Assembly: GCA_944380855.1 (NCBI GenBank)
Contig: CALWIW010000014.1
Coordinates: 1 to 49,842 of the forward strand
Origin: an uncultured Clostridia bacterium
GTDB lineage: Bacteria > Bacillota > Clostridia > Oscillospirales > Acutalibacteraceae
Direction of reading: 5' to 3'
Length of the DNA stretch: 49,842 nt
Below the pieces are notes generated by a model that did not search any database, was not told the origin of the DNA, and saw nothing but the letters and a program-made list of their open reading frames with translations. Of the stretch, positions 2,439 to 46,465 are shown one piece after another. Made by a program: the position numbers and the translations under genes. How positions within the stretch are numbered: position 1 is the stretch's first letter; every line of letters starts with the position of its first letter.

Positions 2439-2742
2439 CCGACCTGCAAAGGTTACTTTTTTAAATAAACGTCATTTCAGGTCGGGCGAGACTTTTGGCT
2501 CCGACCTGCAAAGGTTACTTTTAAAAATAAACTGCATTTCAGGTCGGGCGAGACCTTTATTTTTTATCCGACTTTTTTATTTCTGCCGTGCAAAGGTTCA
2601 GCTTAATCTTTAATTTCTACACACGGCAGGCGAAACCTTTATTTTTATATCCGCCTTGCAAAGGTTAAACTATAAATTAACTTTCATTTCAAGGCTGGCG
2701 AGAACTTATTCTTATTATTTAGAATAGCTCGCTCTCATTTAA
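2439..2742 (+). repeat. Four tandem 47-nt palindrome-capped repeats plus GCTCGCTC flank
   Basis: Copies lie at 2439-2485 and 2501-2547 (arms ccgacctg/caggtcgg), 2583-2629 (ctgccgtg/cacggcag) and 2651-2697 (ccgccttg with an imperfect partner caaggctg). Each has caaaggtt just inside the left arm, and three of the four are followed by gcgaNac. The array ends with agaatagctcgctctc at about 2719-2735. The arms change together while the loop stays similar. Confidence 0.85.
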
Positions 2743-2835
2743 CTTTTTTACTTACACAATCATACAATAAAACAGATATTTATTCAATATCTTTATTACT
2801 CATTTTTCTTTTTAAAAATTACAAAATTATTTATG

Positions 2836-2864
2836 GTAGGGGCGGATTATATATCCGCCCCTAC
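2836..2864. repeat. Perfect GC-rich inverted repeat
   Basis: Arms GTAGGGGCGGAT (2836-2847) and ATCCGCCCCTAC (2853-2864) flank a 5-nt loop, giving a 12-bp stem in otherwise AT-rich spacer. A similar GTAGGGGC palindrome occurs at 30691-30717, and partial versions at about 2971-2997 and 44429. It has no adjacent T-run, so it does not look like a simple terminator. Confidence 0.7.
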
Positions 2865-3128
2865 AGCATTTTACAAACACCATTTCCGCTTTAAATCCGA
2901 TTTTTTATTAACATTATTTCAATACAATGTGGAAACTTTTATTATTTATAATTTTTTATCTCAATATAAAATTATGAGCGGATTACATATCCGCCCATAG
3001 AAATCTTATTATATTAAATATCAATTCCGAGTTAAAATCGATTTTTTATCAACATTTCTTTAATACAATGTGGAAAAAAATTCTGATTGTGAGAATAGCC
3101 ACTCTAAATGATTAAAACAAACTCTTAC

Positions 3129-3363
3129 CCGCCGCATAACGTGCACCAACTGACAATGCAAAGTCATCCAAGGCGGAACTAAAAAAATTCTAAACGATAA
3201 ACAAAACTTTTCCCCAACCCATAACGAACGGTGTCTGCCATAGAGAAGTCATACAAAACAGCTATAAAAACTTATCTGTGAGAATAGCTACTCCTAATAA
3301 TAAAACAAACCTCACCCCGCCGCATGGCGTAAGTTTTCTGACAAATGAACCTGTCCCAGGCGG
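3129..3363 (-). repeat. Two diverged relatives of the 47-nt repeat (5-bp arms)
   Basis: Segments 3129-3176 (48 nt) and 3317-3363 (47 nt) begin ccgccgca and end aggcgg, so only the outer five positions (ccgcc/ggcgg) pair. They resemble the copies at 37381-37427 and 46419-46465. Between them, 3177-3316 holds another degenerate, similar stretch. The whole spacer 2413-3370 contains no convincing gene. Confidence 0.6.
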
Positions 3364-3370
3364 AACTAAA

Positions 3371-4741
3371 TTACTTGCCGACACAGAAGTTGTGGAATAC
3401 TCGGTCTACTACTGTTTCGCTTACACGTTCGCCGGTCAGCTCTAATATGCAGGAAATTGCGTCCTCAAGGGAAACTGTAACTGCATCGTATGTCATTCCC
3501 ATTTCTAATGCTTCTTTTGCTTCTTTCAGGGATTTTAAAGAATTTAATACGGCATCTCGCTGTCTTTCGTTGGAAAGTATGCCCTGTGACGGGTCAAAGT
3601 TTTCCGCTCCGCAGATTTCCGTTACGGCGTTTGTCAGGCTTTCAAGTCCGGTATTATTGGCGGCTGAAATGTAGACTATCTTCTTTACATAGTCCTTTAT
3701 TATGTCATCATTAAGCTCTTTTTCCAGGTCTGTTTTATTTACAACGGCAATGCAGGGAGTTCCTTTCAGTTCTTCCAAAAGCTCCATATCGTCATCATTA
3801 AGCTTTGATGAGTTATCAAAAACAGCTAAAACCAAACCGCAGTTTTTTATTCTCTCCTTTGCCCTTGAAACACCTATCTGCTCAACCTTATTGTCCGTAT
3901 CTCTTATTCCGGCAGTGTCGCTGAGTCTTAAAATAACGTCGCCCAAAACAACAGTTTCTTCTATTATATCCCTTGTTGTTCCCGGGATTTCTGTGACAAT
4001 GCTTTTTTCACAGCCGGCAAGCAAATTCATTATAGTTGATTTTCCTACGTTGGGCCTGCCCACAATTACGGTATCTATTCCCTCTTTAACAGCCTGTCCC
4101 ACATCATAAGTTTTCAAAAGGTCGTTAAGTTCTTTTTCAGATTCTTTAATACTGTTTTCCAAGGCTTCAAAAGAAACCTCCGGAATATCCTCCTCGGGAT
4201 AATCTGCCCAAGCCTGCAAATGGGCTGTTCTGGTTAAGATATCCTCTTTTACCTTATCTATTCTCTTTCGCAATGCACCTTCACGTACGGAAAGGGCGGC
4301 TCTTGCGGCAGCTTTGCTTTTAGCACCTATAATATCCATAACTGATTCAGCCTCAGTTAAATCTGTTTTACCGTTTAAGAAAGCTCTTTTCGTAAATTCA
4401 CCTGCTTCGGCAAGTCTTGCACCGTTTTTCAGAACCGTTCTCAAAACCTCACGGGTTACAAAAATTCCGCCGTGGCAGGAAATTTCCACCACGTCCTCAC
4501 CTGTATAGCTGTGAGGTGCTTTAAAAACAAGGGACACTACCTCGTCAATGCACTGTTCATCATCGTAAACTTTTCCGTACAGTGCCGAATATCCTTTAAG
4601 CTCAGAAAGCTTTTTTCCTCCTGCGGATTTAAAAACATTATCTGCAATTTCAACGGCTCTGTCCCCCGATATTCTTATAACGCCTATACCGCCTGCACCC
4701 TGTGCCGTGCTTATAGCCGCAACTGTATCAAATTCACTCAT
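3371..4741 (-). CDS. mnmE: tRNA uridine-5-carboxymethylaminomethyl(34) synthesis GTPase MnmE (TrmE)
   Basis: MnmE is the GTPase and formyl-THF-binding partner of MnmG in U34 modification. The 456-residue protein has the expected order: N-terminal THF-binding domain (GAGGIGVIRISG near residues 15-26; SCHGG near 89-93), a helical domain, an embedded G domain with P-loop GRPNVGKS at 228-235 and TTRDIIEE switch, NKTD further on, and the C-terminal CVGK motif (Cys453) that supplies the catalytic cysteine. An AGAGG ribosome binding site lies 8 nt before the ATG. The stop is followed by the repeat-rich spacer before mnmG. Confidence 0.97.
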   Translation of the reverse strand: MSEFDTVAAISTAQGAGGIGVIRISGDRAVEIADNVFKSAGGKKLSELKGYSALYGKVYDDEQCIDEVVSLVFKAPHSYTGEDVVEISCHGGIFVTREVLRTVLKNGARLAEAGEFTKRAFLNGKTDLTEAESVMDIIGAKSKAAARAALSVREGALRKRIDKVKEDILTRTAHLQAWADYPEEDIPEVSFEALENSIKESEKELNDLLKTYDVGQAVKEGIDTVIVGRPNVGKSTIMNLLAGCEKSIVTEIPGTTRDIIEETVVLGDVILRLSDTAGIRDTDNKVEQIGVSRAKERIKNCGLVLAVFDNSSKLNDDDMELLEELKGTPCIAVVNKTDLEKELNDDIIKDYVKKIVYISAANNTGLESLTNAVTEICGAENFDPSQGILSNERQRDAVLNSLKSLKEAKEALEMGMTYDAVTVSLEDAISCILELTGERVSETVVDRVFHNFCVGK

Positions 4742-4765
4742 TTATAACACCTCTATTTTTTATTT

Positions 4766-4850
4766 CCGCCTTGCAAAGGTTTAATTTAAAAACAAACGTC
4801 GTTTCAAGGCGGGCGAAACCTTTTCATTATTCTTTGGAATGGCTCGCTCT
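4766..4850 (+). repeat. 47-nt palindrome-capped repeat with GGAATGGCTCGCTCT flank
   Basis: Arms ccgccttg (4766-4773) and caaggcgg (4805-4812) bound 47 nt. Aaaggttt inside the left arm is also complementary to aaaccttt just outside the right arm, so a second, mutually exclusive pairing is possible. The conserved flank ggaatggctcgctct follows at 4836-4850. This is one of the clearest composite copies. Confidence 0.85.
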
Positions 4851-4871
4851 TATTTAACTTTGTTTTTTATT

Positions 4872-4887
4872 TGTTTCACGTGAAACA
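4872..4887. promoter_or_regulatory. parS site (ParB/Spo0J binding), intergenic
   Basis: An exact TGTTTCACGTGAAACA palindrome in the mnmE upstream spacer, identical to the one inside mnmG about 4 kb away. Confidence 0.95.
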
Positions 4888-5057
4888 ATAAATTTCACAC
4901 TTTAATATTCTCTTTAAATAATTGTTTATTATATACCCATCAACATTCATATTTATCCGCTGAAATTTTCCATTCTAATATATATTTATATAAAATATTA
5001 TACTATAATATTTTATATAAAGATAATCATTCCAAAGCGAAAAAGAAAACCCTTGCC

Positions 5058-5105
5058 CCGCCGTGAACTCCATCTGATTTTTAAAACAAACCTTTCCCAC
5101 GGCGG
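5058..5105 (-). repeat. Palindrome-capped repeat (arms ccgccgtg/cacggcgg)
   Basis: A 48-nt copy in reverse orientation, with arms at 5058-5065 and 5098-5105. The flank attccaaagcg precedes it at about 5030. The arm sequence differs from neighbouring copies but pairs perfectly. Confidence 0.75.
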
Positions 5106-5127
5106 AATCAAAAAAAACGGCGGAGAT

Positions 5128-5160
5128 AAAAAAAGACGGAAATGTATTATCATCTCCGTC
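5128..5160 (-). terminator. Rho-independent terminator after jag
   Basis: Read on the minus strand: a 10-bp stem with one mismatch (5151-5160 with 5135-5144), a 6-nt loop, then a run of seven T (5128-5134). It lies directly downstream of the jag stop and would end the rpmH-rnpA-yidD-yidC-jag transcript. Confidence 0.9.
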
Positions 5161-5171
5161 CTTTAACTTAA

Positions 5172-5987
5172 TTATTTATCAATTCTGCCGTAAAGGCCGG
5201 TTGCTCCGCCCTCATTGATAGGTTTGCGTTCTGCCAAAGGCTTGCTGTCGCCGGAACGCTTATCATAACCGTCTCTTTTTGAACCGGAGAACTTATTGTT
5301 ATATCTTCCCTTTTGACCGAATTTTCCGCCTCTCGGATTTCTTCTCTGAGGCTTCGGTGCTTTCGGGTCCGGACCTATAACCACATGACGTGCGGCGTTT
5401 TCACCCTCGCTCCAGGATATTGCACCGTTTACTTTCTGAACCGCAGTATGAATTATTCTTCTTTCATATGGATTCATAGGCTCCAAAGAGGTTTTTGCTC
5501 CTGTTTTTACAGCCTTGAAAGCAAGCTTTCTGCCTAAAATTGCAAGAGTCTCTTCTCTTTTTTCTCTGTAATTTCCTGTATTAAGAGTAATTCTGTAATA
5601 GTTATTATCCACGTGATTTGCAACAAGACCGGTAAGATACTGCAAAGCGTCAAGGGTTTCTCCCCTTCTGCCTATAACATATCCGACCTCTTCGCCCTCG
5701 ATGGATATCTCCACACCGTCTTCCTTATCGTGCTTTTCAACAGTAAGATTTTCAGCTCCCATTGCCTTTAAAACATTTTTAAGATACTCAACAGCAGTTT
5801 CAACGGGACTTACTTCAATGTAAACTCTTACCTTTGCCGGACTTCCTCCGAACAATCCTAATCTTTTCTTTTCGGGCATCTTTAAGATTTCAAACTCGGT
5901 TTCAAAGGTTTCAACGCCAAGCTCTTTGCAGGCATTTTCCCTTGCTTCATCTACAGTTGCACCTACTCCGATAGCTTCCTTAATCAA
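5172..5987 (-). CDS. jag: Jag/KhpB (EloR) RNA-binding protein
   Basis: This RNA-binding protein is linked in other Bacillota to cell elongation and partners with KhpA. Domains in order: Jag-N (MIKEAIGVGATVDEAREN, residues 1-50, with KKRLGLFGG), a KH domain with the GRRG loop at about residues 106-109, an R3H domain (ERRIIHTAVQKVNG), then a basic, glycine-rich tail. The frame is open to a TTG at 6008, but that codon has no ribosome binding site. The TTG at 5985-5987 follows AGAAGG with 7-nt spacing and gives the usual N-terminus, so I chose it (271 aa). It is last in the minus-strand yidC operon. Confidence 0.92.
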   Translation of the reverse strand: MIKEAIGVGATVDEARENACKELGVETFETEFEILKMPEKKRLGLFGGSPAKVRVYIEVSPVETAVEYLKNVLKAMGAENLTVEKHDKEDGVEISIEGEEVGYVIGRRGETLDALQYLTGLVANHVDNNYYRITLNTGNYREKREETLAILGRKLAFKAVKTGAKTSLEPMNPYERRIIHTAVQKVNGAISWSEGENAARHVVIGPDPKAPKPQRRNPRGGKFGQKGRYNNKFSGSKRDGYDKRSGDSKPLAERKPINEGGATGLYGRIDK

Positions 5988-6106
5988 AATTTCACCTTCT
6001 CGGAACAATAAAAATTTCTTATTTTTTCTCGTTTAACGTTATATATAGTCCGCGGTAAGCGGATAAATTTCAAAAATTTTGTAATATTACACTTTAGTTC
6101 GCTTAA

Positions 6107-7024
6107 TTACTGCAACTTTTCCGCATTTTTTTCCTGTATACGGAGAAGTGCCACGTGCTGTGCCTCCATTTTACCGCCCATTTTTGTGGCGTTATAGAAT
6201 TTATGAAGGACAAGGCTCTGAACAAATCCCAAAACAGTTGATACTATCCAATAGAAACCAACGGCAGCGGGAACGCTTAAAGCAATCCAAGCCGAGAACA
6301 AAGGCAATACAAAAAGCATAACCTTCATACAGCCCTGCATCTGGTTGCCCTGAATCTTTGTCATGGCAAACTGTGAGCCGATTGAGGTTAAAAGACACAG
6401 TGCCGGAATTATATAATATATTCCGCCTGCAACGCTTGGTGTTGACAAAAGGTCAAGACCTAAGAAATTAAAGCTTTGGTTAAACATGGAAATATTTGCA
6501 ATATCGCTTGCGGAGAATATTTCCGAAATAAAACTTGAATTTTGAATAGCCGGGAAAATATTTACAAATTCAATCTGCTGATAGAAAGTATTTGAAGATG
6601 TTTGAAGTCCCGGTATGGAGTTCATAAAACCTACAGCGTCGTTTACCGACTGAGCAGAAAGGTGAAGGGTATTGGTAAGCGGATAGGCAACGCTGTAAAA
6701 AACTCCCAAAAGAACAAGCATAGGCAGGATTGAAGTAAGGCATCCGCTCATAGGAGAAGTATTTTCTCTCTCATAAAGCTTCTGCATTTCCTGATTAAGC
6801 TTGTTTCTGTCGTTTGCGTACTTTTCTTTCAAAAGCTTCTGCTTTTCCTGAAGCTTTTGGTTTGCCGCCATAGATTTTTGCTGTTTAATTGAAAACGGGA
6901 ATGTGATTATCTTAATAATCAGGGTAAATATAATAATCGCTATACCGAAGTTCTTAACGATAAGCAAAGGCCACCACAGCAAGTAGCCCAATACAAAACC
7001 AATGTAGTTGAATATTTGCATCAT
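6107..7024 (-). CDS. yidC: Membrane protein insertase YidC/Oxa1 family
   Basis: YidC inserts and folds proteins in the cytoplasmic membrane, alone or with SecYEG. This 305-residue protein is the short Gram-positive type without the large periplasmic domain. It starts with a hydrophobic segment, then IIIFTLIIKIITFPFSIKQQKSM, the family pattern before the cytoplasmic coiled-coil hairpin (residues about 55-90). Later segments include SGCLTSILPMLVLLGVFY and a final ALSVPAAVGFYWIVSTVLG. No lipobox is visible. The ATG follows GAGGT. Its position between yidD and jag is the usual one in Bacillota. Confidence 0.95.
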   Translation of the reverse strand: MMQIFNYIGFVLGYLLWWPLLIVKNFGIAIIIFTLIIKIITFPFSIKQQKSMAANQKLQEKQKLLKEKYANDRNKLNQEMQKLYERENTSPMSGCLTSILPMLVLLGVFYSVAYPLTNTLHLSAQSVNDAVGFMNSIPGLQTSSNTFYQQIEFVNIFPAIQNSSFISEIFSASDIANISMFNQSFNFLGLDLLSTPSVAGGIYYIIPALCLLTSIGSQFAMTKIQGNQMQGCMKVMLFVLPLFSAWIALSVPAAVGFYWIVSTVLGFVQSLVLHKFYNATKMGGKMEAQHVALLRIQEKNAEKLQ

Positions 7025-7042
7025 GGTTAAACTACCTCACAA

Positions 7043-7273
7043 TTAGCTTTTCCTTTTTTTCTTTTCGGGAACGGGGTCAAACCCGCCTTTCGAAAAAGGA
7101 TTACATCTCAAAATTCTCCATACGGTCATAAGTCCGCCCTTAAAAGCACCGAAACGCTCAATGGCTTCAAGTCCGTACTGAGAACAAGTGGGATAATATT
7201 TGCACTTCGGAACAGTCCTTGGTGAAATATTTTTTCTGTAAAATCTGATAAGCTGTAATAAAATCTTTTTCAT
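7043..7273 (-). CDS. yidD: Membrane protein insertion efficiency factor YidD
   Basis: A small basic protein that aids YidC-dependent insertion. It shows the family signature [14 protein letters not shown] followed by [24 protein letters not shown]. The frame can be read back to a TTG at 7294, but that codon lacks a ribosome binding site. The ATG at 7273 gives [18 protein letters not shown], the conserved N-terminus with an amphipathic basic helix, so I use it (76 aa). It lies between rnpA and yidC on the same strand. Confidence 0.93.
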
Positions 7274-7322
7274 AATCAAAGTCTTAATAACCAAACAATC
7301 CGAAATTTTTTTATACCAATTT

Positions 7323-7679
7323 TTAAGTAGGAGACTTTACGTCCTCAATAATCAATCCCGCAGTTTTCAAATGACTTTGCATACAACTTAAAACATCTGT
7401 GCTTTTTACATAGGGAGTTTTACCTCTGGCAACAAAAACAATGTCGTACCCCTTTTTGATATCTCCCTCAAGCATATAGAAAGCCGCCCTGATAACTCTT
7501 CTTGCTCTGTTTCGCTGGACAGCTTTTCCGATTTTCTTGCCGGTAGTGATTCCGTAACGCAGGTTATTTGAATTATTTTTTATTATATAAGTAACAAGCA
7601 AAGGGCTTACAAAAGATCTGCCTCTCTTATAAGCTCTGGAAAATTCTCTTTTTTCTTTTAAAGTGAGGGCATCACTCAT
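7323..7679 (-). CDS. rnpA: Ribonuclease P protein component
   Basis: The protein subunit that helps the RNase P ribozyme mature tRNA 5' ends. The 118-residue product has the family hallmark [15 protein letters not shown] (RNR motif), preceded by [18 protein letters not shown] at 7688 is in frame upstream, but the ATG at 7679 has AAGGTG at good spacing and gives [18 protein letters not shown], so it is preferred. A hairpin with a T-run separates it from rpmH upstream. Confidence 0.95.
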
Positions 7680-7764
7680 TAAAATCACCTTAAACCGGAA
7701 ATTTCGTCAAACACATATAAGCAGCAGAAAACTCTGCCGCTTACCTTTGACTGAAATGAATTTT

Positions 7765-7800
7765 AAAAATACAGACCACAAAAAGGTGGCCTGTATTTTA
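7765..7800 (-). terminator. Hairpin with T-run between rpmH and rnpA (terminator or attenuator)
   Basis: On the minus strand AAATACAGGCCACC pairs with GTGGTCTGTATTT across a loop of T, followed by further T. It stands 15 nt past the rpmH stop, so it could reduce transcription into rnpA-yidD-yidC-jag relative to rpmH. Confidence 0.8.
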
Positions 7801-7814
7801 ACCTTTTTTATTAA

Positions 7815-7949
7815 TCAGTAAGAAAGTCTCTTTCTGCCTTTTGCTCTTCTGCGAGCCAATACTTTGCGTCCGTTTCTGTCAGACATTCTCTTTCTGAAGC
7901 CATGCTCTTTTTTTCTGTGAAGCTTTTTTGGCTGGTAAGTTCTCAGCAT
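7815..7949 (-). CDS. rpmH: 50S ribosomal protein L34
   Basis: A 44-residue, highly basic ribosomal protein: it starts [19 protein letters not shown] and ends AKGRKRLSY, the usual length and sequence for L34. GGGAGG lies 8 nt before the ATG. It is the first gene of the minus-strand transcript and is divergent from dnaA, the classical arrangement at bacterial origins. Confidence 0.98.
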
Positions 7950-7990
7950 TTAAAAATCCTCCCTTCGGATACATAACCTTGCACCTTAGC

Positions 7991-8019
7991 ATTATATATT
8001 ACTTTTGAAAATACGTCAA
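7991..8019 (-). promoter_or_regulatory. Sigma-A-type promoter for rpmH
   Basis: On the minus strand: TTGACG (8014-8019), 17-nt spacer, TATAAT (7991-7996), about 40 nt before the rpmH start. Only one base departs from consensus. Confidence 0.88.
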
Positions 8020-8209
8020 GGGTTTTACCTTTATTTTTCCGTCTATATCCGTAAAAAAAGAACTTTTTTTATTAATTATTTTACAAAAAATGCACCCACA
8101 TAAAATATTTCATATAAAATTGAAAAGAATAAACAAAAAGTCAAATTTTAAAAAAGCAAATTTGCACAGTGACAAAAGCTTCTTATGTTGAAAAAAATTA
8201 AAAAATAAG

Positions 8210-15629: not shown

Positions 15630-15942
15630 TTTTTATATCCGACTTTTTTATTTCCGCCTTGCAAGACTTTAGTTTGAAGATTAACACCGTTTCAAGGCGG
15701 GCGAGGCGTTTTGTTAAGCGACTTAAAATAGCTCGCTTGCGATTGGATTGATTTAGAAATTTTTTATTTTCTAAAAAAGGTCAGTCAAAAATGAACATCT
15801 TTAAAAGTAGGGCGAGGCGTTTCCTGAAATTTTTGGAATGGCTCGCTCTCGGTAAGGTTTGATATAGAATTATATCTAAACAGTCGGACAGTTTATAGGG
15901 ATAAAATAAGAATTACATTTATAAAAAACAGAGGCGAAAGTA
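15630..15942 (+). repeat. Repeat-bearing spacer with one 47-nt element and two flank motifs
   Basis: One palindrome-capped element lies at 15654-15700 (arms ccgccttg/caaggcgg), preceded by the shared prefix atatccgactttttta. Flank motifs aaaatagctcgctt (about 15725) and ggaatggctcgctctc (about 15836) occur without a complete second element between them. No gene seen. Confidence 0.75.
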
Positions 15943-16371
15943 ATGAAAATATCTAAAACAGAGTTGACGGTCAGATATGCGGAAACAGACCAAATGGGAA
16001 TAGTGCATCACAGCGTTTACCCTATATGGTACGAGGCAGGCAGAACCGATTATATAAAAATGTTTGATATGACTTACAGTCAAATGGAAGAAGCAGGAGT
16101 TATGATGCCTCTTGTAAATCTCAGCTGCCATTACGGAATCCCTGCAAGGTATGAGGACGTTGTGGTGGTTGAAACCAGAGCCATAAAGCTGTCTGCGGCT
16201 AAGATGATTTTTTATTACGAGGTAAAAAGAAAGAGCGACGGAGTTTTGCTTGGAAGCGGAACAACCGAGCATGGTTTTGTGGACTCAAAAACCTTTAAGC
16301 CTGTAAATGTAAAGAAAAAGCTTCCAGAGCTTTTTGCGAAAATTTCCGAGGACATAAGGGAAGAAAATTAA
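15943..16371 (+). CDS. Hot-dog fold acyl-CoA thioesterase (YbgC/FadM-like)
   Basis: A 142-residue protein of the 4-hydroxybenzoyl-CoA thioesterase group. The start VRYAETDQMGIVHHSVYPIWYE contains the conserved D-x-x-G-(I/V)-x-(H/N) active-site pattern, with Asp and the HH pair. This family hydrolyses acyl-CoA thioesters; the natural substrate cannot be told. An AGAGGCGAAAG ribosome binding site is present. It sits alone between gyrB and gyrA, separated from each by repeat elements, so it may be an insertion into the usual gyrBA pair. Confidence 0.88.
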   Translation: MKISKTELTVRYAETDQMGIVHHSVYPIWYEAGRTDYIKMFDMTYSQMEEAGVMMPLVNLSCHYGIPARYEDVVVVETRAIKLSAAKMIFYYEVKRKSDGVLLGSGTTEHGFVDSKTFKPVNVKKKLPELFAKISEDIREEN

Positions 16372-16485
16372 ATTTTTAAAATAAATAATTTATAATAAAG
16401 AAATTTACGTAGGTGCAGTAAATAAAAATTGTGATAAGCGTAAATGTAAGCGAACCATTCTAAGTCGTTTAGAAAAAGGTCTCGC

Positions 16486-16599
16486 CCGACCTGTAATGAG
16501 GTTTATTTTTAAAACGGCCTTTGCAGGTCGGATTAAAAAAATAAGGTTTCGCCCGCCATGTGCAGAACCTTACCGTCATATGGAGGTTAAGCATGGCGG
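16486..16599 (-). repeat. Two palindrome-capped repeats upstream of gyrA
   Basis: Copies at 16486-16531 (arms ccgacctg/caggtcgg, 46 nt) and 16553-16599 (ccgccatg/catggcgg, 47 nt), in reverse orientation, with the flank gcgaaccattctaa at about 16450. The second is nearly the same as the copy before aspS at 30939-30985. They end only 25 nt from the gyrA start and would be part of its leader RNA. Confidence 0.85.
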
Positions 16600-30603: not shown

Positions 30604-30650
30604 CCGACCTGCAAATGTGTTATATGAAAATAAACGTCGTTTCAGGTCGG
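30604..30650 (+). repeat. 47-nt palindrome-capped repeat (arms ccgacctg/caggtcgg)
   Basis: Forward copy with arms at 30604-30611 and 30643-30650, followed by gcgagacgttt. Aaatgt inside the left arm can pair, with one wobble, with acgttt outside the right arm. Confidence 0.85.
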
Positions 30651-30717: not shown

Positions 30718-30809
30718 GTGGGTTGTAAAAAATATATTGAAGTAATTGAAGTATAAATTGAAGTTTATTTATAGCGAGCCATTCTAAAAAATTAAGAAAA
30801 AGGTTTCGC

Positions 30810-30985
30810 CCGCCTTGAAACGATGTTTATTTTTAAGGCAAAGTCTTGCAAGGCGGAAATAAAAGATTCGCCCGACGGAAAACGGAAGCTGACTTCAAGC
30901 TGACCCTTTCCCCGTCGGAATAAAAAATAAGGATTCGTCCGCCATGTGCAGAACCTAACCGTTATATGGAAGTTAAGCATGGCGG
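30810..30985 (-). repeat. Three palindrome-capped repeats in the aspS leader
   Basis: Copies at 30810-30856 (ccgccttg/caaggcgg), 30872-30918 (ccgacgg/ccgtcgg) and 30939-30985 (ccgccatg/catggcgg), each 47 nt, reverse orientation, with 15-20 nt between them. The flank agcgagccattctaaa precedes at about 30773-30788. The last copy ends 27 nt from the aspS start. Confidence 0.87.
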
Positions 30986-37380: not shown

Positions 37381-37604
37381 CCGCCTTGGAAAGAGTCATC
37401 TTTTGGAAAACCTCCCCTTTGCGGCGGTTTTAACTTCTTTTTCCTGACGCAGAATGGCTTTTCTTTCCTTACAGTTTATTTTTTTTATATCCGACGTGCA
37501 AAAGTTTTTCTATTGAATAAACACCAGCACACGTCGGGCGAGACGTTGATTTTTAAAATTAAAATGGCTATGTCACGGTTAAATTTGTGGTATAGCCGTT
37601 TTTA
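37381..37604 (+). repeat. Composite spacer block A (inverted partner of block B at 46 kb)
   Basis: Contains a relative of the 47-nt element (37381-37427), the segment cctgacgcagaatggctt and neighbours (37443-37480), a full element at 37491-37537 (ccgacgtg/cacgtcgg), and a hairpin atggctatgtcac..gtggtatagcc (37563-37600). The same parts, in the same order, occur as reverse complement at 46044-46465. A second hairpin, cagccatggtc..gaccatg-like, is at 37648-37676. Confidence 0.85.
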
Positions 37605-37747
37605 TTATAATGTTTAATAAATAATATTATTATCATAAAAGAAAAAACAGCCATGGTCAAAAAATAACCATGACTGTAAAATTATAATATTTAAAATCAA
37701 ACTCTATTGAGAGCGAACCATTCCAAAGATTAAACAAAAGGTTTCGC

Positions 37748-37856
37748 CCGACCTGTGTAGTAGTCGATTTCTATATATTTCCTTGGCAGGTCGGAGTCAA
37801 AAGTTTCGCCCGCCTTGTAATGAAGTTTATTTTTAAATTAAAGTCTTGCAAGGCGG
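37748..37856 (-). repeat. Two palindrome-capped repeats after the smsB stop
   Basis: Copies at 37748-37794 (ccgacctg/caggtcgg) and 37810-37856 (ccgccttg/caaggcgg), with the flank gagcgaaccattcc at 37711-37724. The second copy and its neighbours are nearly identical to 46279-46325 in the same direction. Confidence 0.85.
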
Positions 37857-40490: not shown

Positions 40491-40506
40491 AAGAGGAAAT
40501 AAAGCT

Positions 40507-41022
40507 ATGAATAATAACGGTATTGAAATAGAAAGAAAATATCTTATAAAAATGCCCGATATGGAAAAGCTCAGACAAACGGATAACTACGACTTTTCCG
40601 AAATAGAACAGGTTTATGTCAGCGACACAATGGACGGCATGTTCGGAAGAATAAGAAAAAGAGGAAAAAACGGAGTTTATAAATACTACAAAACCTTTAA
40701 AAAGGACGTAACAGTCGTTACCCGTATAGAAATAGAAAGCGAAATTTCCGAAAAAGAATATAAAGAGCTTAAAAAACACTGCCGTGAGGGTTTTGGAATT
40801 ATAGAAAAAACACGCCACGTATTTGATTACAAGGGTCAGACCTTTGAGCTTGATATTTTCCCATTTTGGAATGATAAAGCTTTTTTAGAAGCCGAGGTTT
40901 CTTCGGAAGATACAGAAATACCGATACCTCCCTTTATTGAAGTTATAAAAGAGGTTACAGAAGACCTAAGCTACAGAAATTCAGCTTTGGCGGTTTGGGT
41001 TTTTAAAAACACGGCTGAGTAA
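40507..41022 (+). CDS. CYTH-domain protein (triphosphate tunnel metalloenzyme family)
   Basis: A 171-residue protein beginning with the family mark EIERKYLI (ExExK). Later strands carry the expected charged residues (RIRKRG, YKYYKTFKK, RIEIESEI, FELDIFPFW, EAEV). Members bind triphosphates; activities include triphosphatase and adenylyl cyclase, and the substrate here is unknown. It starts 16 nt after the Crp/Fnr stop, so both are probably in one transcript. Confidence 0.88.
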   Translation: MNNNGIEIERKYLIKMPDMEKLRQTDNYDFSEIEQVYVSDTMDGMFGRIRKRGKNGVYKYYKTFKKDVTVVTRIEIESEISEKEYKELKKHCREGFGIIEKTRHVFDYKGQTFELDIFPFWNDKAFLEAEVSSEDTEIPIPPFIEVIKEVTEDLSYRNSALAVWVFKNTAE

Positions 41023-41082
41023 AAAATCCCCTGCATTAAGTGCGGTGATTTTCTGCTGTAAATGGTGTATTTTAATAATGGT

Positions 41083-41176
41083 TGTATAGCAAATGTTTGG
41101 GGAAAATTTTGGGATTCCAAAGGGACCAGTGTCCCTTTGGCAGGTGGTTTGGAGGACAGTGTCCTCCAAGGTCTTA
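41083..41176 (+). repeat. Double-hairpin repeat (copy 3)
   Basis: ttccaaagggac..gtccctttgg then ggaggaca..tgtcctcc, followed by aaggtctt. It matches 11158-11218 through both hairpins, and matches 19245-19290 in its first half including the leading tatagcaaatg. Confidence 0.72.
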
Positions 41177-41233
41177 AAATTCGTTAACGCCGATTTAAGT
41201 GACTTTCAGATTATGTTTTGAATAACAAAACTC

Positions 41234-41262
41234 TTTACAAAACAATTACTCTGTGATATTAT
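41234..41262 (+). promoter_or_regulatory. Promoter for copA
   Basis: TTTACA (41234-41239), 17-nt spacer, TATTAT (41257-41262), 55 nt upstream of copA and directly before a G/C-tract palindrome. Confidence 0.75.
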
Positions 41263-41266
41263 TGAT

Positions 41267-41290
41267 ATACACCCCACGGGGGTGGTGTGT
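41267..41290. promoter_or_regulatory. Candidate CsoR operator
   Basis: An imperfect palindrome atacaccccacggggg followed by tggtgtgt, with C- and G-tracts like known CsoR sites. It overlaps the expected transcription start of copA, where a repressor would block it; csoR is encoded just downstream. Confidence 0.6.
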
Positions 41291-41317
41291 TTTTGATAAA
41301 TATAAGGGGTGATATAA

Positions 41318-43930
41318 ATGAAAGAAAAATACGATATAACGGGAATGACTTGCAGTGCCTGCAGTGCTCACGTGGAAAAAGCCGTTAAAAAGCTTTCGGG
41401 CATGAAAAACGTCAGCGTTAATCTTCTGCAAAATTCTATGACCGTTGAGTACGACCAAAATTCTTTAAGTTCACAGGATATAACAGAGGCAGTTGAAAAG
41501 GCAGGCTACGGGGCTTTCCTTAAAACCAATGAGGCTGTGAAAGCTTCAGGCAATAAAAACGCTCAGACGGCAAAAGCGGAAAATAAAAGCGAAAAAAACG
41601 CCGCAGAGATGAAAAAAAGACTTATAAGCTCCTTTTGTTTTCTGATACCATTAATGTATTTTTCCATGGGACATATGCTGGGAGCACCTTTGCCAAAAAT
41701 TCTAAGTCCTGCGTTTAACCCGCTTATTTTTGCATTGATCCAGCTTTTTCTCACTTTGCCAATTATGTATATTAACCGAAAGTATTTTAAAACCGGATTT
41801 AAAACGCTTTTTAAGCTGTCCCCGAATATGGATTCCCTTATAGCTATAGGATCGGGAGCTTCGGCTGTTTACAGCATTTATATTATTTTTAAAATGGCTT
41901 ATTCCATGGGACTGGGCCATATGGCTTCCGCTCACCATATGGCAATGGATTTATACTTCGAGTCGGCGGCAATGATACTGACTCTTATAACCTTGGGAAA
42001 ATATTTCGAGGCACGTTCCAAAAAGAGAACCTCAGACGCCCTTACAAAGCTTATGAACCTTGCACCTAAAACCGCAGTTGTGGAAAGAAACGGCGAGGAA
42101 ATTGAAATTCTGTCGGAACAGGTGGCAGAGGGCGACATTGTAATTATAAGACCCGGACAGAGTATTCCCGTTGACGGAATTGTCACAGAGGGCAGAGGCT
42201 CCGTTGACCAGTCCGCAATAACAGGGGAGAGCATACCAGAGGAAAAAACAGTGGGAAGCTCGGTAATCGGTGCCACCGTAAACAAAAGCGGATTTTTTAA
42301 ATTCAAAGCCACAAAGGTTGGCGAAAACACAACTTTGGCACAGATTATAAAGCTGGTTGAGGAAGCAGGCGGCTCGAAAGCTCCCATTGCAAAGCTTGCG
42401 GACAAGGTAAGCGGAGTTTTCGTTCCTATTGTTATAGCAATAGCTGTAATCACCGCCGCCGTTTGGCTTATATTGGGATACCCCTTCAGCTTTGCCCTTA
42501 CAATGGGAATTTCCGTCCTTGTAATTTCCTGTCCCTGTGCTTTGGGACTTGCAACTCCCACGGCGATTATGGTGGGAACAGGCAAGGGAGCGGAAAACGG
42601 AATACTTATAAAATCAGCGGAAGCACTTGAAACGGCACATCTGATAAATACGGTTGTTTTGGATAAAACGGGAACAATAACCATGGGAACTCCAGTTGTA
42701 ACCGACGTTTTTCCCATAAAGGGAGAAACCGTGGAAAGCCTTGTTTCCCTTGGGGCGGCTGTTGAAAAACCCTCTGAGCACCCGTTGGCAGACGCTATTG
42801 TAAAATATGCAAATGAGAAAAAAATAAACATTCCCAATGTCCAAAACTTTTTTGCCCGTGAGGGAGAAGGAATCGGCGGAGAGGTTGACGGAAGAAAAAT
42901 ACTTGCAGGAAATCTTAAAATGATGCATAATAACGGTATAGATACGGAAAAAGCCGAAAAATATACTGAACAGTTGGCTCAGGAGGGGAAAACTCCCATG
43001 TATTTTGCCGCAGAGGGCAGACTTTTGGGAATTATCGCTGTTGCCGACACAATTAAGCCCACAAGCCCTCAGGCTGTTTCGGAATTTGAGAAAATGGGAA
43101 TAGACGTTGTAATGCTTACAGGTGACAACGCAAAAACCGCCGAGGCTATAAGAAAAAAAGCAGGAGTAAAGAGTGTTGTGGCACAGGTTATGCCTCAGGA
43201 CAAGGCGGCAGAGGTTCAAAGACTTCAAAAAGAGGGCAAAAAGGTGGCAATGATTGGCGACGGAATTAACGACGCTCCCGCACTGGCGTCATCAGACGTG
43301 GGAATCGCCATCGGAGCTGGTACTGATATTGCCATAGAATCGGCGGACGTTGTGCTTATGAAAAGCGATTTGCTGGACGGAGTAAACGCTGTCAGACTCA
43401 GCAAGGCTGTTATTAAAAACATCAAGGAAAACCTTTTTTGGGCATTTTTCTACAACGTAATCGGCATACCCATTGCCGCAGGAGTTTTCTACTGGGCAGG
43501 ACTTACCCTAAACCCAATGATTGGAGCGGCGGCAATGAGCTTCAGTTCAGTGTTCGTTGTTTCAAACGCATTAAGACTTAAATTTTTCAAGCCTTTAAAA
43601 TCCAATGAATACTGCACCGATAACTGTGCAGTAAAGAAACAATCAGACAGTACGGTAAATATTTCATATATTGAAGCTTCTTCAGAGGAGCAGAAAACAA
43701 AAAAAGAAAAGGAGAAAATCAAAATGAAAAAAACAATTATAATTGAAGGCATGATGTGTATGCACTGTGTAGCAAGAGTACAAAAAGCACTTGAGGATAT
43801 AGACGGAGTTACGGCTCAGATGGATTTGGATAAGAAAGCCGCATACCTTACCCTTGAAAAGGAAGTTTCCGACGAGATTTTGACAAAGGCCGTTACCGAC
43901 GCAGGTTATCAGGTGGTTACAATTCTTTAA
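41318..43930 (+). CDS. copA: Copper-exporting P1B-type ATPase CopA with N- and C-terminal metal-binding domains
   Basis: An 870-residue membrane pump that exports Cu(I). Order: N-terminal heavy-metal domain GMTCSACSAHVEKAV (Cys12, Cys15), eight expected membrane helices, CPC motif in ISCPCALGLATPTA (about 404-406), phosphorylation site DKTGTIT (about 448), SEHPLADAI, and GDGINDAPAL. After the last helix a charged linker leads to a second metal domain with MMCMHC (Cys814, Cys817), equal to a whole CopZ chaperone. Most CopA proteins lack a C-terminal domain of this kind. csoR follows 31 nt later, giving a repressor-controlled copper operon. Confidence 0.95.
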   Translation: MKEKYDITGMTCSACSAHVEKAVKKLSGMKNVSVNLLQNSMTVEYDQNSLSSQDITEAVEKAGYGAFLKTNEAVKASGNKNAQTAKAENKSEKNAAEMKKRLISSFCFLIPLMYFSMGHMLGAPLPKILSPAFNPLIFALIQLFLTLPIMYINRKYFKTGFKTLFKLSPNMDSLIAIGSGASAVYSIYIIFKMAYSMGLGHMASAHHMAMDLYFESAAMILTLITLGKYFEARSKKRTSDALTKLMNLAPKTAVVERNGEEIEILSEQVAEGDIVIIRPGQSIPVDGIVTEGRGSVDQSAITGESIPEEKTVGSSVIGATVNKSGFFKFKATKVGENTTLAQIIKLVEEAGGSKAPIAKLADKVSGVFVPIVIAIAVITAAVWLILGYPFSFALTMGISVLVISCPCALGLATPTAIMVGTGKGAENGILIKSAEALETAHLINTVVLDKTGTITMGTPVVTDVFPIKGETVESLVSLGAAVEKPSEHPLADAIVKYANEKKINIPNVQNFFAREGEGIGGEVDGRKILAGNLKMMHNNGIDTEKAEKYTEQLAQEGKTPMYFAAEGRLLGIIAVADTIKPTSPQAVSEFEKMGIDVVMLTGDNAKTAEAIRKKAGVKSVVAQVMPQDKAAEVQRLQKEGKKVAMIGDGINDAPALASSDVGIAIGAGTDIAIESADVVLMKSDLLDGVNAVRLSKAVIKNIKENLFWAFFYNVIGIPIAAGVFYWAGLTLNPMIGAAAMSFSSVFVVSNALRLKFFKPLKSNEYCTDNCAVKKQSDSTVNISYIEASSEEQKTKKEKEKIKMKKTIIIEGMMCMHCVARVQKALEDIDGVTAQMDLDKKAAYLTLEKEVSDEILTKAVTDAGYQVVTIL
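43724..43930 (+). CDS. Possible separately translated CopZ chaperone inside copA
   Basis: Within copA, AAGGAG at 43709-43714 stands 9 nt before an in-frame ATG at 43724. A product from this start would be 68 aa, beginning MKKTIIIEGMMCMHC, a complete CopZ-like copper chaperone. The strong internal ribosome binding site just at the domain boundary suggests both a fused and a free form are made. An alternative is that an ancestral copA-copZ pair fused by loss of the stop codon and the old site is a relic. Confidence 0.55.
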   Translation: MKKTIIIEGMMCMHCVARVQKALEDIDGVTAQMDLDKKAAYLTLEKEVSDEILTKAVTDAGYQVVTIL

Positions 43931-43961
43931 ACGAATTATTTATATAGAAAGGGCGGTAAAT

Positions 43962-44222
43962 ATGAAAGCGGACAGAAAAAAGGTGGAAACCCTTATAAAG
44001 ACCGCAAAGGGTCAGCTTGAGGGAGTTTTAAAAATGATTGAAGATGACAGATACTGTATAGACATTTCCAATCAGATTATGGCGGCAAACGCCGTTTTAA
44101 ACAAGGCAAACCGTGAAATACTTGCCGCCCATATGAAAAGCTGTGTTTTGGAAGCTGCAAAAAGCGAAAACGGCGAAGAAAAAATTGACGAGCTTATCAA
44201 AGTTATAAACAAACTTTTTTAA
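43962..44222 (+). CDS. csoR: Copper-sensing repressor CsoR
   Basis: An 86-residue all-helical DUF156 protein with the Cu(I) ligands of CsoR in place: Cys32, His57 and Cys61 (YCIDISNQI; AAHMKSCV). Apo-CsoR represses copper genes and releases DNA when it binds Cu(I). It starts after AAAGGGCGG. Being last in the copA operon, it would regulate its own synthesis through the site at 41267-41290. Confidence 0.92.
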   Translation: MKADRKKVETLIKTAKGQLEGVLKMIEDDRYCIDISNQIMAANAVLNKANREILAAHMKSCVLEAAKSENGEEKIDELIKVINKLF

Positions 44223-44246
44223 TTTTTTATATCCGCTTTTTTAAAT

Positions 44247-44402
44247 CCGCCTTGCAGCACTTCTGTTTGGAAATTAACACCGTTTCAAGGCGGGCGAATC
44301 TTTTGTTTCCGCCTTGCAAGACTTCAATTTAAAAATAAACTTTATTACAAGGCGGGCGAAACCTTTTACTTAATCTTTGGAATGGCTCGCTCACATAAAT
44401 AT
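44247..44402 (+). repeat. Two palindrome-capped repeats plus GGAATGGCTCGCTC flank
   Basis: Copies at 44247-44293 and 44309-44355 (both ccgccttg/caaggcgg, 47 nt), preceded by the prefix atatccgcttttttaaat and followed by ggaatggctcgctca (44379-44393). The spacer 44223-44658 has no gene; it also contains a gtaggggcggattc half-palindrome at about 44428. Confidence 0.87.
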
Positions 44403-44530
44403 TTTTACTATGCTTTTTATTCTCTGTGTAGGGGCGGATTCTTTTTTGTCCGTCGGAAAACAAAATTTTATTTATATCGGAGTTTAAAAATCCGTTCCTA
44501 AGAAAGATAAACAAACTTTAATAAAACTTT

Positions 44531-44578
44531 AGACTGAAATAAGACAGCGGCGGTAAAATGATTACCGCCGCTCAGTCT
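44531..44578 (+). terminator. Strong hairpin upstream of the MATE gene
   Basis: An inner perfect 11-bp stem agcggcggtaa/ttaccgccgct (44546-44556 with 44562-44572) inside an outer agactga/tcagtct pair, followed by gtttctt. It probably terminates upstream transcription before the MATE promoter. Confidence 0.75.
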
Positions 44579-44583
44579 GTTTC

Positions 44584-44612
44584 TTGCAGATTGTGTTTTT
44601 TTATTTTATAAT
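44584..44612 (+). promoter_or_regulatory. Promoter for the MATE gene
   Basis: TTGCAG (44584-44589), 17-nt spacer, TATAAT (44607-44612), about 45 nt before the start codon. Confidence 0.7.
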
Positions 44613-44658
44613 ATTTTTAATATAATCATATATAAGACAAAAATAAGGAGGGTTTTGA

Positions 44659-46032
44659 ATGGCTGTAAAGCCGCTTGGCACAGAAAAAAATGATTTAACC
44701 CAAGGAAGTCTGGTTAAAAAGGTTACATTGTTTTCCCTGCCATTTTTGCTTGCAAATATTATACAGGCACTTTACGGGGCGGCTGACCTTTTTGTAATAG
44801 GTCAGTACTGTTCTGCGGAAAGTGTGGCGGCTGTTTCCACCGCAACACAGGTAACTCAGATAATCACAAGCATTATTTCGGGTCTTACCTTGGGCGGCAC
44901 CGTCCTTGTGGGCAAATATGTGGGAATGAAAAGGGAAAAGGAAGTTAAGGAAACAATAGGAACTAATCTTACATTGTTTTTCTTTGCGGGAATTATACTT
45001 ACTGTTTTGCTTTTGATTTTTTCCGAGCCGATACTTTACGCTTTGCAGACGCCTGCGTCTGCCTTTGAAAAAGCAAAGGAATATGTGACCGTTTGCAGTT
45101 TCGGCATTGTATTTATCTGCGGATATAACGCCATAAGTGCGATACTCAGAGGTTACGGCGACTCAAAAACGCCCTTGATTTTTGTAGCCTTTGCAGGGAT
45201 TTTAAACATTATCGGGGATATTGTGCTGGTAAAATATTTTAATATGGACGTTAGCGGTGCGGCTTTGGCGACGATTGTTTCCCAGGGTGTAAGTATGTTT
45301 TGCTCCATTATATACCTTAATAAAAAGCAGTTTGTATTTGCCTTTAAGCTTAAAAATTTCAAGGTGGTAAAAGAGAGGGCCTTGGAGCTTGCGAAAATAG
45401 GAATACCCATAACCTTGCAGGAATGTATGGTAAGGCTTTCCTTTCTGTATCTCACCTCGGTGACAAACAGCTTGGGAGTAGCCGCTTCCTCGGCTGTGGG
45501 AATAGCAAGCAAATACGATGTTTTTGCAATGCTTCCGGCAACCTCGGCGGCTAACGCTTTGGCGTCTGTTGTTGCACAAAATTACGGTGCGGGAAAATAT
45601 CAGAGAATGAACAAATCCCTGCTTGTGGGAATTTGCTTTGCTCTGCCCATATCACTGTGCTTTTTCCTTTGGGCACAAATTTCTCCTGAAACAATGCTGG
45701 GGCTCTTTACAAAGGACAGCGAAATAATAAAAGTGGGAATAGACTTTTTCAGAACCTGTAGTTATGATTACATAGCAGTGCTGTTTGTGTTCTGCTTTAA
45801 CGGATATTTAAACGGAAGAACAAAGACGCTGTTTACAATGATAAGCTGCTGCTTCGGAGCTTTGGCACTTAGAATGCCGCTTATATATCTTGTATGCAGA
45901 TATTTCCCGGGTAATTTGGGAATAATCGGAACGGTGGCCCCGACAGTATCGGGAATAATGGCTGTTTACACATTGATTTATGTTTTGTATTTGGTTAAAA
46001 AACATAACCATGGGGATTTTTTATATAATTAG
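44659..46032 (+). CDS. MATE-family efflux transporter
   Basis: A 457-residue protein with about 12 transmembrane helices in two similar halves, of the kind that exports drugs or metabolites using a Na+ or H+ gradient. Family features: the start QGSLVKKVTLFSLPFLLANIIQALYGAADLFVIG, AISAILRGYGDSKTPL, and the second-half GIPITLQECMVRLSF. AAGGAGGG precedes the ATG. Substrate unknown. It is a single gene with its own promoter, and a hairpin (46048-46075) directly follows the stop. Confidence 0.93.
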   Translation: MAVKPLGTEKNDLTQGSLVKKVTLFSLPFLLANIIQALYGAADLFVIGQYCSAESVAAVSTATQVTQIITSIISGLTLGGTVLVGKYVGMKREKEVKETIGTNLTLFFFAGIILTVLLLIFSEPILYALQTPASAFEKAKEYVTVCSFGIVFICGYNAISAILRGYGDSKTPLIFVAFAGILNIIGDIVLVKYFNMDVSGAALATIVSQGVSMFCSIIYLNKKQFVFAFKLKNFKVVKERALELAKIGIPITLQECMVRLSFLYLTSVTNSLGVAASSAVGIASKYDVFAMLPATSAANALASVVAQNYGAGKYQRMNKSLLVGICFALPISLCFFLWAQISPETMLGLFTKDSEIIKVGIDFFRTCSYDYIAVLFVFCFNGYLNGRTKTLFTMISCCFGALALRMPLIYLVCRYFPGNLGIIGTVAPTVSGIMAVYTLIYVLYLVKKHNHGDFLYN

Positions 46033-46043
46033 TATCATAATAA

Positions 46044-46465
46044 AAAATGGCTGTGTCACAACGTTAACCGTGACATAGCCATTGTAATTTTTAAAACTAA
46101 CGTCTCGCCCGCCTTGAAACGATGTTAATTTCCAAACAAAAGTGTTACAAGGAGGAAATAAAAAATTCGCCTGACGTGTGCTGGTGTTTATTTAATAGAA
46201 AAAATTTTGCACGTTGGAACTAAAAAAGAAAGTTAAATGAGAGCGAGCCATTCTAAAGGAAACAGAGGAAGGTATCGCCCGCCTTGTAATGAAGTTTATT
46301 TTTAAATTAAAGCATTGCAAGGCGGATTTAAAATAAAGGCGGATTTAAAAAATTCGGAGATAAAAAATAAACTGTAAGGAAAGAAAAGCCATTCTGCGTC
46401 AGGAAAACGAAGTTAAAACCGCCGCAAATGAGAGGTTTTCCGAAAGCTGACCCTTTCCAAGGCGG
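46044..46465 (-). repeat. Composite spacer block B (inverted copy of block A) with extra 47-nt repeats
   Basis: Read as reverse complement this repeats 37381-37604: the relative at 46419-46465, the cattctgcgtcagg segment, the element at 46171-46217 (ctgacgtg/cacgttgg, where both changed bases still pair as wobbles), and the hairpin atggctgtgtcac..gtgacatagccat (46048-46080). Additional elements sit inside at 46109-46155 (ccgccttg/caaggagg) and 46279-46325 (ccgccttg/caaggcgg), with the flank gagcgagccattctaaa at 46240-46256. Confidence 0.87.

What the first reader, a model, noticed from the sequence alone, without database searches (positions are those of the whole stretch)
2439..46325. Family of fixed-length 47-nt repeats with covarying 8-nt arms
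At least 21 spacer copies are bounded by complementary 8-mers (7-mers in one). Arm-to-arm length is 47 nt in nearly all (46 or 48 in two). Starts: 2439, 2501, 2583, 2651, 4766, 5058, 15654, 16486, 16553, 30604, 30810, 30872, 30939, 37491, 37748, 37810, 44247, 44309, 46109, 46171, 46279. Arms differ between copies yet stay complementary: ccgacctg/caggtcgg, ccgccttg/caaggcgg, ccgccgtg/cacggcgg, ccgccatg/catggcgg, ccgacgtg/cacgtcgg, ctgccgtg/cacggcag, ccgacgg/ccgtcgg. At 46171 both changes keep pairing as G-U wobbles. Such covariation implies selection on the paired structure, in RNA or as a DNA cruciform. The fixed length suggests a unit recognised by a protein, as in REP or small MITE families. 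Most copies lie in gene-end or leader positions; none is clearly inside a required gene.
Basis: seen in the sequence. Interest (0 to 1): 0.85.

Follow-up and report, generated by a model that had tools for sequence, protein, structure and literature searches.

The report
Hairpin repeat modules lining gene ends
A gut bacterium and its close relative carry over a hundred copies of a short hairpin-forming DNA repeat, mostly parked in a fixed orientation next to where genes begin or end; the two arms of the hairpin change together, so their pairing matters, but what reads the hairpin is unknown.

Summary
All 21 sites exist; 17 have perfectly complementary 8-nt arms (15 at 47 nt, one at 46, one at 48). 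The family is larger: at least 143 matches in this genome, at least 150 in its only held congener (inferred to be Anaeromassilibacillus sp. An172), none convincing in 58 genomes of other genera. Arm covariation is real: with sites selected by the left arm, the two best covarying column pairs of 2,556 are arm pairs 6-42 (all four pair types) and 4-44, beyond a tree-based null. Units picked only by a preceding head motif show the other six arm positions nearly invariant. The tail side points at a gene: the last unit ends within 15 nt of the stop codon in 59 of 101 stop-facing arrays, and within 40 nt of the start in 30 of 55 start-facing ones. The loop sequence is kept on the element strand whichever way the gene runs, favouring DNA-level identity over sequence-specific RNA function. 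Best reading: a genus-restricted, BOX/REP-like, non-autonomous modular repeat whose folded hairpin is recognised by an unidentified partner. No transposase link or MITE hallmark was found. New variant of a known kind.

The parts
2439..2697 (-). array of 4 units (2439-2485, 2501-2547, 2583-2629, 2651-2697), head to tail on the - strand, tail facing the mnmG start (2412)
2698..2757 (-). class A head of the mnmG-leader array (GTTAAATGAGAGCGAGCTATTCTAAA...)
4766..4812 (-). single unit, tail facing the mnmE start (4741)
4813..4872 (-). class A head of the mnmE-leader element
5058..5105 (+). single 48-nt unit, tail facing the jag/khpB 3' end (5172); its best match at the orthologous G001 site is also 48 nt
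15654..15700 (-). single unit, 24 nt from the gyrB stop; unit identical 47/47 at the orthologous site of G001
15701..15760 (-). class A head of the gyrB 3' element
16486..16599 (+). array of 2 units (46 nt and 47 nt), tail facing the gyrA start
16426..16485 (+). class A head of the gyrA-leader array
30604..30650 (-). single unit on the hisS 3' side (about 290 nt from the stop); no class A head recognised
30810..30985 (+). array of 3 units (30810, 30872, 30939), last unit 21 nt from the aspS start (31007)
30750..30809 (+). class A head of the aspS-leader array
37491..37537 (-). single unit on the 3' side of a TPM-domain gene, with a second repeat family (near 37407) between its tail and the gene
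37538..37597 (-). class B head (AATGGCTATGTCACG... terminator-like hairpin)
37748..37856 (+). array of 2 units, last unit 11 nt from the 3' end of the SufBD-like gene (37868)
37688..37747 (+). class A head, stop type, with a hairpin terminator of the neighbouring gene beyond it (read by eye)
44247..44355 (-). array of 2 units, last unit 24 nt from a called gene stop (44222)
44356..44415 (-). class A head
46109..46217 (+). array of 2 units (46109, 46171) with a class B head, after the MatE gene
46279..46325 (+). single unit with its own class A head at about 46219-46278 (merged with the previous array)

Best explanation
This is a genus-restricted family of modular, non-autonomous interspersed DNA repeats that works like the pneumococcal BOX elements and REPs. 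Each element is head + 1-5 hairpin units + A-rich tail. The unit is read by a trans-acting partner in folded form (a DNA hairpin or cruciform), through conserved arm letters CCGnCnTG/CAnGnCGG plus base pairing, at a set loop length of 31 nt. Elements persist where they do least harm or were put to use: in the untranslated space flush against translation, before the ribosome-binding site or after the stop codon. Units then turn over inside old sites by loss, duplication and copying from other sites. Shown: anatomy, pairing, genus restriction among the genomes searched, polarity towards genes, different units at shared sites. Inferred: recognition in folded DNA form, copying in trans, and that nothing sequence-specific is done by the RNA.
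For: Covariation with sites selected by the left arm: ranks 1 and 2 of 2,556 column pairs, both beyond a tree null; compensatory double changes. Units chosen only by a head motif and the TCGC tag: arm positions 1, 2, 3, 5, 7, 8 conserved in 89-94 of 95, positions 4 and 6 variable. Span 47 dominates among spans 38-57. Head, units and tail, 1-5 units per array. Present in 2 of 2 genus members and in no other of 58 relatives convincingly. Loop profile of start-facing and stop-facing units correlates 0.97 on the element strand, 0.19 on the transcript strand. At least 14 of 20 orthologous gaps with an element have one in both species, yet 29 of 36 units match some paralog better than the best unit at the orthologous site (my count; there are far more paralogs to choose from, which inflates this).
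Against: No mobilising enzyme identified; G000 is 86% complete, so a missing enzyme is weak evidence. No inverted ends seen and no clean empty site with a duplication. The polarity towards genes and the different distal head at starts and stops are more than a random parasite needs. Movement itself was not seen. At stops the wobble counts do fit RNA pairing. Loop likeness between contexts could be shared ancestry alone.
Confidence: 0.5

Rival explanations
1. RNA-level module: the units are hairpins in mRNA 5' and 3' untranslated regions that protect or regulate transcripts (an RNase barrier or a protein-binding leader), placed as close to the ribosome-covered region as possible.
For: The last unit often ends 7-11 nt from a stop codon or 21-30 nt from a start codon. 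A terminator was detected beyond the first unit, pointing away from the gene, in 45 of 94 stop arrays and 4 of 45 start arrays. In L115 the order is TPP aptamer, terminator, element, ribosome-binding site, gene. RNA folds of two of four tested element stretches beat shuffles (z -3.6, -4.7); so does the L115 leader, which includes the riboswitch terminator. Wobble test at stops: on the transcript strand 27 G-U against 16 A-C, as predicted.
Against: At stops the transcript carries the reverse complement, yet the loop profile is alike on the element strand (0.97 against 0.19). Wobble test at starts: 8 G-U against 14 A-C, opposite to prediction. The head hairpin and the AAAGGT/ACCTTT pairing show no covariation. 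The other two of four folds were ordinary (z -1.4). No promoter enrichment at starts: best-match scores upstream were alike for start and stop arrays.
Confidence: 0.27
2. Chromosome-organisation or DNA-binding sites: units are bound as cruciforms or inverted half-sites by a nucleoid, gyrase or partition-like protein, which would explain regional clustering.
For: Strong clustering over contigs (chi-square 292 against a maximum of 203 in 5,000 simulations). 0 units in 180 kb of nine control stretches; one of them (C3) has syntenic matches at 84% identity in G001, so it is not foreign. The dnaA contig is the densest G000 contig over 20 kb.
Against: Half-site binding predicts the same consensus in both arms, not covariation (inference). 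Controls were chosen from contigs or stretches already known to lack listed hits. Distance to the origin could not be shown: marker positions in two complete relatives disagree.
Confidence: 0.13
3. Neutral mutational origin: template switching perfects quasi-palindromes, so arms covary without selection.
For: Template-switch correction of quasi-palindromes is a known mutation process (recalled, no call).
Against: It would act on every stem position, but in units chosen without using arm letters six of eight positions hardly vary (89-94 of 95) and only two covary. The span is held near 47.
Confidence: 0.05

Closest known systems
BOX elements of Streptococcus pneumoniae / S. suis (PMC3049150; found passages and section 6 seen)
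   Same: Modular repeat with end modules around a variable number of tandem stem-loop modules; high copy, mostly intergenic; array length varies between strains at the same site; about half of insertions shared by all strains compared.
   Different: Here the tail side faces genes in a fixed polarity at short distance, the unit is a fixed 47 nt with a 31-nt loop and demonstrated arm covariation. BOX has terminal inverted repeats likened to ISSpn2 and a proposed mover; none was seen here. Sequence was not compared with BOX.
GTAG- and CGTC-tagged REPs / REPINs (PMC3733652 found passages; PMC3116915 listing only)
   Same: A conserved tetranucleotide (here TCGC) directly 5' of a palindromic stem; 8-bp stem; head-to-head neighbours common (18 head-head against 1 tail-tail adjacent pairs with no gene between); variants with different stems.
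   Different: Loop 31 nt against 2-20 (GTAG) or 4-5 (CGTC); tag TCGC; no transposase gene found beside units; same-orientation arrays with a separate head.
Stem-loop sequence families in bacterial genomes (PMC2267715; two passages seen) and small MITEs such as RUP (passages in PMC3049150) or bcr1 (listing only)
   Same: High-copy short non-coding elements, stem-loop bearing, in intergenic DNA; low-GC Firmicutes are among the hosts.
   Different: No inverted ends or target duplications found here; no sequence comparison made.

Membership tests
REP (GTAG/CGTC tagged) | conserved GTAG or CGTC tetranucleotide at the stem base | tested here: not met
   the tag is TCGC, nearly invariant in the window set and at first units
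REP (GTAG/CGTC tagged) | palindromic stem with a short loop (2-20 nt or 4-5 nt, PMC3733652) | tested here: not met
   8-bp stem but a 31-nt loop at the dominant span of 47
REP (GTAG/CGTC tagged) | RAYT/Y1 transposase flanked by REPs (GTAG class) | tested here: not met
   Y1_Tnp 0 in G000 (86% complete), 1 in G001 with no unit or head found in its 2-kb locus
BOX-type modular repeat | distinct end modules around a variable number of tandem stem-loop modules | tested here: met
   head, 1-5 units, tail
BOX-type modular repeat | sequence relationship to boxA/boxB/boxC | not tested
   no BOX sequence was aligned
MITE | terminal inverted repeats | tested here: not met
   profiles of the head end and tail end are not inverted copies; judged by eye, and the outer head boundary is not sharp
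MITE | target site duplication at an empty site | tested here: inconclusive
   four differing sites aligned; one is a decayed relic, the others give no clean junction
Structured RNA family (Rfam) | match to a curated covariance model | tested here: not met
   no match at units in the window and the 23 loci searched, 3 of them at a relaxed threshold; other loci not searched
Base-paired element (any) | covariation beyond phylogeny | tested here: met
   pairs 6-42 and 4-44 above every value of 120 tree-simulated nulls

The most novel reading that the evidence does not exclude
The genus has a dedicated gene-boundary mark: a hairpin DNA module that a protein reads in folded form and that is placed, in a fixed polarity, at the outer edge of the translated region at both ends of genes, with head variants specific to gene starts and gene stops. 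Targeting would then follow translation or transcription boundaries rather than a DNA motif.
Probability: 0.15. Interest if true: 0.88.

Novelty: new variant of a known kind. Interest (0 to 1): 0.55.

Why it matters
It is a bacterial repeat family in which selection on pairing can be shown from one genus alone, and whose polarity is tied to gene ends at short, nearly constant distance. That makes two open questions testable: what spreads BOX/REP-like elements that lack a visible enzyme, and whether such elements become working parts of transcript ends. An172 is a named isolate, so the tests may be feasible.

Tried and rejected
Pseudoknot between AAAGGTY before the left arm and ACCTTT inside the loop: 66% of cells paired in the window set, but no covariation in the larger set. 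Head hairpin GCGARCC/GGTYTCGC: R and Y vary independently. Head read as a leader peptide: the start codon is not kept (by eye). RNA-strand wobble test: met at stops, opposite at starts. REP transposase: not found beside units. Contamination as the cause of unit-free contigs: composition similar (tetranucleotide r with the window 0.84-0.96), and one such stretch has syntenic matches in the congener. Origin-proximal placement: inconclusive. First covariation run was spoilt by 46/48-nt units out of register and replaced. One search's 11 stretches outside An172 (Proteobacteria, a Methanoregula, a planctomycete) are treated as chance. The plasmid search with dnaA was uninformative. Paper searches listed nothing that I recognised as describing this repeat (listings only, and the library holds open-licence papers only); two gave the REP and BOX literature.

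Biases and rows dropped. The left-only selection fixes arm letters 1, 3, 5 and 8 and limits 2 to C/T, so invariance there says nothing; therefore re-tested it with head-anchored sites (95 of 105 head cores had a TCGC in reach). Right-only selection gave perfect complementarity at span 47 in 61 of 111 (own) and 117 of 157 (G001), units of 46/48 nt being out of register; 0 sites in the controls. The scanner only allows spans 46-48. One search used 178 of 187 left-selected sites (9 with a bad right end), 173 distinct. Gene contexts rest on my own codon-usage gene caller. Distances run from the unit, not from the head or tail end; the head is about 60 nt long, so head-side distances above 50 are partly by construction. 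One search used only arrays with a recognised head and a tail within 150 nt of a gene (41 start, 63 stop); its Fisher test leaves out 18 start rows with neither motif, 2 with both, and 8 stop rows with neither. One search kept 144 of 164 arrays. score at most 150 (81, with stricter filters) candidates per genome, so copy numbers are minima. One search's shared-site count is a minimum: at least one gap scored as G001-only (L109, asnB) also has an array in G000. The clustering simulation assumes 76 arrays and uses the hit list, retyped by contig.
Full report
What was checked. The 21 reported sites were read directly. All coordinates are right. Seventeen have perfectly complementary 8-nt arms (15 at 47 nt, one at 46, one at 48), one pairs with two G-T wobbles, one has 7-bp arms and two pair at 7 of 8. 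Exact complementary 8-mers at other spans from 40 to 55 number 1 to 5 each, against 17 at 47. The window carries mnmG, mnmE, jag, yidC, dnaA, dnaN, gyrB, gyrA, hisS and aspS relatives, so it is probably a replication-origin region. It is the whole of contig C14 of a 1.89-Mb, 63-contig draft genome.

How many and where. A covariance model built from the 21 copies finds 143 matches at E <= 0.01 in the genome. Of 60 genomes searched as relatives, the genome itself and its congener G001 have it; one match in G058 at E = 0.0056 is taken as chance. The genus holds only these two genomes, and G001 has 150 matches at E <= 1e-6. Counts are minima because at most 150 candidates per genome are scored. 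G001 has the contig lengths of Anaeromassilibacillus sp. An172 (family Acutalibacteraceae). An exact-pattern scan of the genome collection gave 43 stretches, 32 from An172; the other 11 are single matches (two of them in one Sphingomonadales bin) and are treated as chance. The same pattern in viral contigs gave none. Rfam gave no match at units in the window and the 23 loci searched.

Fixed length. Sites were selected by the left arm and its TCGC tag only, and spans 38-57 were tested. The right arm pairs (wobbles allowed) at span 47 in 63 of 94 sites in G000 and 69 of 93 in G001, at 48 in 11 and 10, at 46 in 3 and 1, at 44 in 1 and 0, and nowhere else; the remaining sites have no fully paired arm. 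A scanner that ignores pairing and the variable arm positions, but only allows spans 46-48, finds 124 units in 217 kb of G000 hit regions (103 at 47) and 187 in 393 kb of G001 (161 at 47), none in shuffled sequence, and none in 180 kb of nine control stretches.

Covariation. With left-only selection and the right end placed by invariant letters only, 173 distinct units give arm pair 6-42 as the best covarying pair (CG 71, TA 67, GC 16, AT 13) and 4-44 as the second (AT 81, CG 78, GC 4). Against 120 alignments simulated on the inferred tree, only these two of 2,556 pairs exceed the null (E below 1/120); next come 4-42 and 6-44, which link the same positions (E 0.075 and 0.083). Same-branch compensatory double changes number 14 on a tree that includes the arms (11 and 3), and 65 on a tree that leaves the arms out (36 and 29); the second figure is inflated if units recombine. 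Among 253 distinct 47-mers, 190 have perfectly paired arms, of 12 types. The selection itself fixes several left-arm letters, so conservation was re-tested on 95 units chosen only by a preceding head motif and the TCGC tag: arm positions 1, 2, 3, 5, 7 and 8 agree in 89-94 of 95, while positions 4 and 6 vary. So pairing is under selection, and most arm letters are also conserved as sequence.

The larger element. 144 of 164 arrays have a recognisable head core upstream of the first unit; the class A consensus is about GAGAGCGARCCATTCCAAAGA..TAA..AAAAGGTYTCGC. A second head class carries a terminator-like hairpin (AATGGCTNTGTCACA...). Arrays end in about ATATAAAAA and hold 1 to 5 units, 15 nt apart in 36 of 110 gaps. 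Of 164 arrays, 101 have their tail side towards a gene stop (last unit within 15 nt in 59, within 40 in 75) and 55 towards a gene start (within 40 nt in 30, within 100 in 38); 8 face no called gene. On the head side the first unit is never within 40 nt of a gene, but the head itself takes about 60 nt. Median distances are 11 and 30 nt on the tail side (stop, start) and 247 and 303 on the head side. The tail side is nearer a gene in 137 of 150, and 6 of 164 arrays overlap a called gene. The distal head differs by context: GTT type 15 and CC type 6 at starts, 8 and 47 at stops (Fisher P = 4e-6), with 18 start and 8 stop rows showing neither motif and 2 start rows both. Terminators pointing away from the gene were detected beyond the first unit in 45 of 94 stop arrays and 4 of 45 start arrays; promoter-like scores upstream did not differ between contexts. 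Two minor unit classes favour starts (10 of 13 against 78 of 260, P = 0.0009, classes chosen after looking), while the main classes occur in both contexts. In L115 the order is TPP aptamer, terminator, element, ribosome-binding site, gene. That the distances match the edges of an initiating or terminating ribosome is inference. One exception: an array in L128 lies upstream of tRNA genes.

DNA or RNA. Start-facing units are on the presumed transcript strand, stop-facing units on the opposite strand. Yet the loop profile (74 start, 156 stop units) is alike on the element strand (correlation 0.97) and not on the transcript strand (0.19). The wobble test for RNA pairing is met at stops (27 G-U against 16 A-C on the transcript strand) but goes the other way at starts (8 against 14). 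The bias follows the element strand, not the transcript. Both speak for identity at the DNA level, though shared ancestry alone could keep the loops alike.

History. In synteny, 20 orthologous gaps carry an element in at least one species and at least 14 in both. Inside shared sites the units differ: the gyrB unit is identical, but the mnmE unit is 0.68 identical to its ortholog and 0.98 to a unit elsewhere in G001; by my count 29 of 36 units match some paralog better, with the caveat that paralogs are many. Four differing sites were aligned; one is a decayed relic in G000 and none gives a clean empty site. Elements are strongly clustered over contigs. One unit-free stretch has syntenic matches at 84% identity in the congener, so it is not foreign. 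Whether the cluster follows the origin could not be decided.

Reading. It works like BOX and REP elements: modular, high-copy, hairpin-bearing, with no gene of its own seen. It is not filed as REP (tag, loop length and transposase tests not met) nor as MITE (no inverted ends seen; duplication test inconclusive). The partner that reads the hairpin is unknown, and the enzyme that spread it was not found.

Noticed in passing
window 37407 (-) and L094, L097, L099, L100, L116, L126, L127, L131: A second repeat family (AACCGCCGCATGGCGGAGGTTTT hairpin, often with CTTCGTCAGGAAA upstream) can sit between an element tail and a gene; 6 copies in G000 hit loci, 5 in G001 loci, 0 in 180 kb of control stretches.
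   Followed up: partly
window 37563, 45957, 46045, 46069 and other loci: A repeated terminator-like hairpin (AATGGCTNTGYCACA half) serves as the alternative head; 19 pattern matches in G000 hit loci, 16 in G001, 0 in control stretches (both strands counted, so one hairpin can count twice).
   Followed up: partly
window 15943-16371: A thioesterase gene lies between gyrB and gyrA, flanked by two arrays whose heads face it, in both genus members; in G098 (another genus) the aligned gyrB and gyrA ends are about 90 nt apart.
   Followed up: partly
L115 1280-1600 (-): TPP riboswitch with a terminator directly upstream of an element and a gene.
   Followed up: partly
G000 contigs C3, C7, C9, C13, C15, C16: No matches listed on these contigs (about 368 kb) although the genome average would predict about 28.
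   Followed up: partly
L115 4457-4697 (-): T-box leader in the same contig.
   Followed up: no
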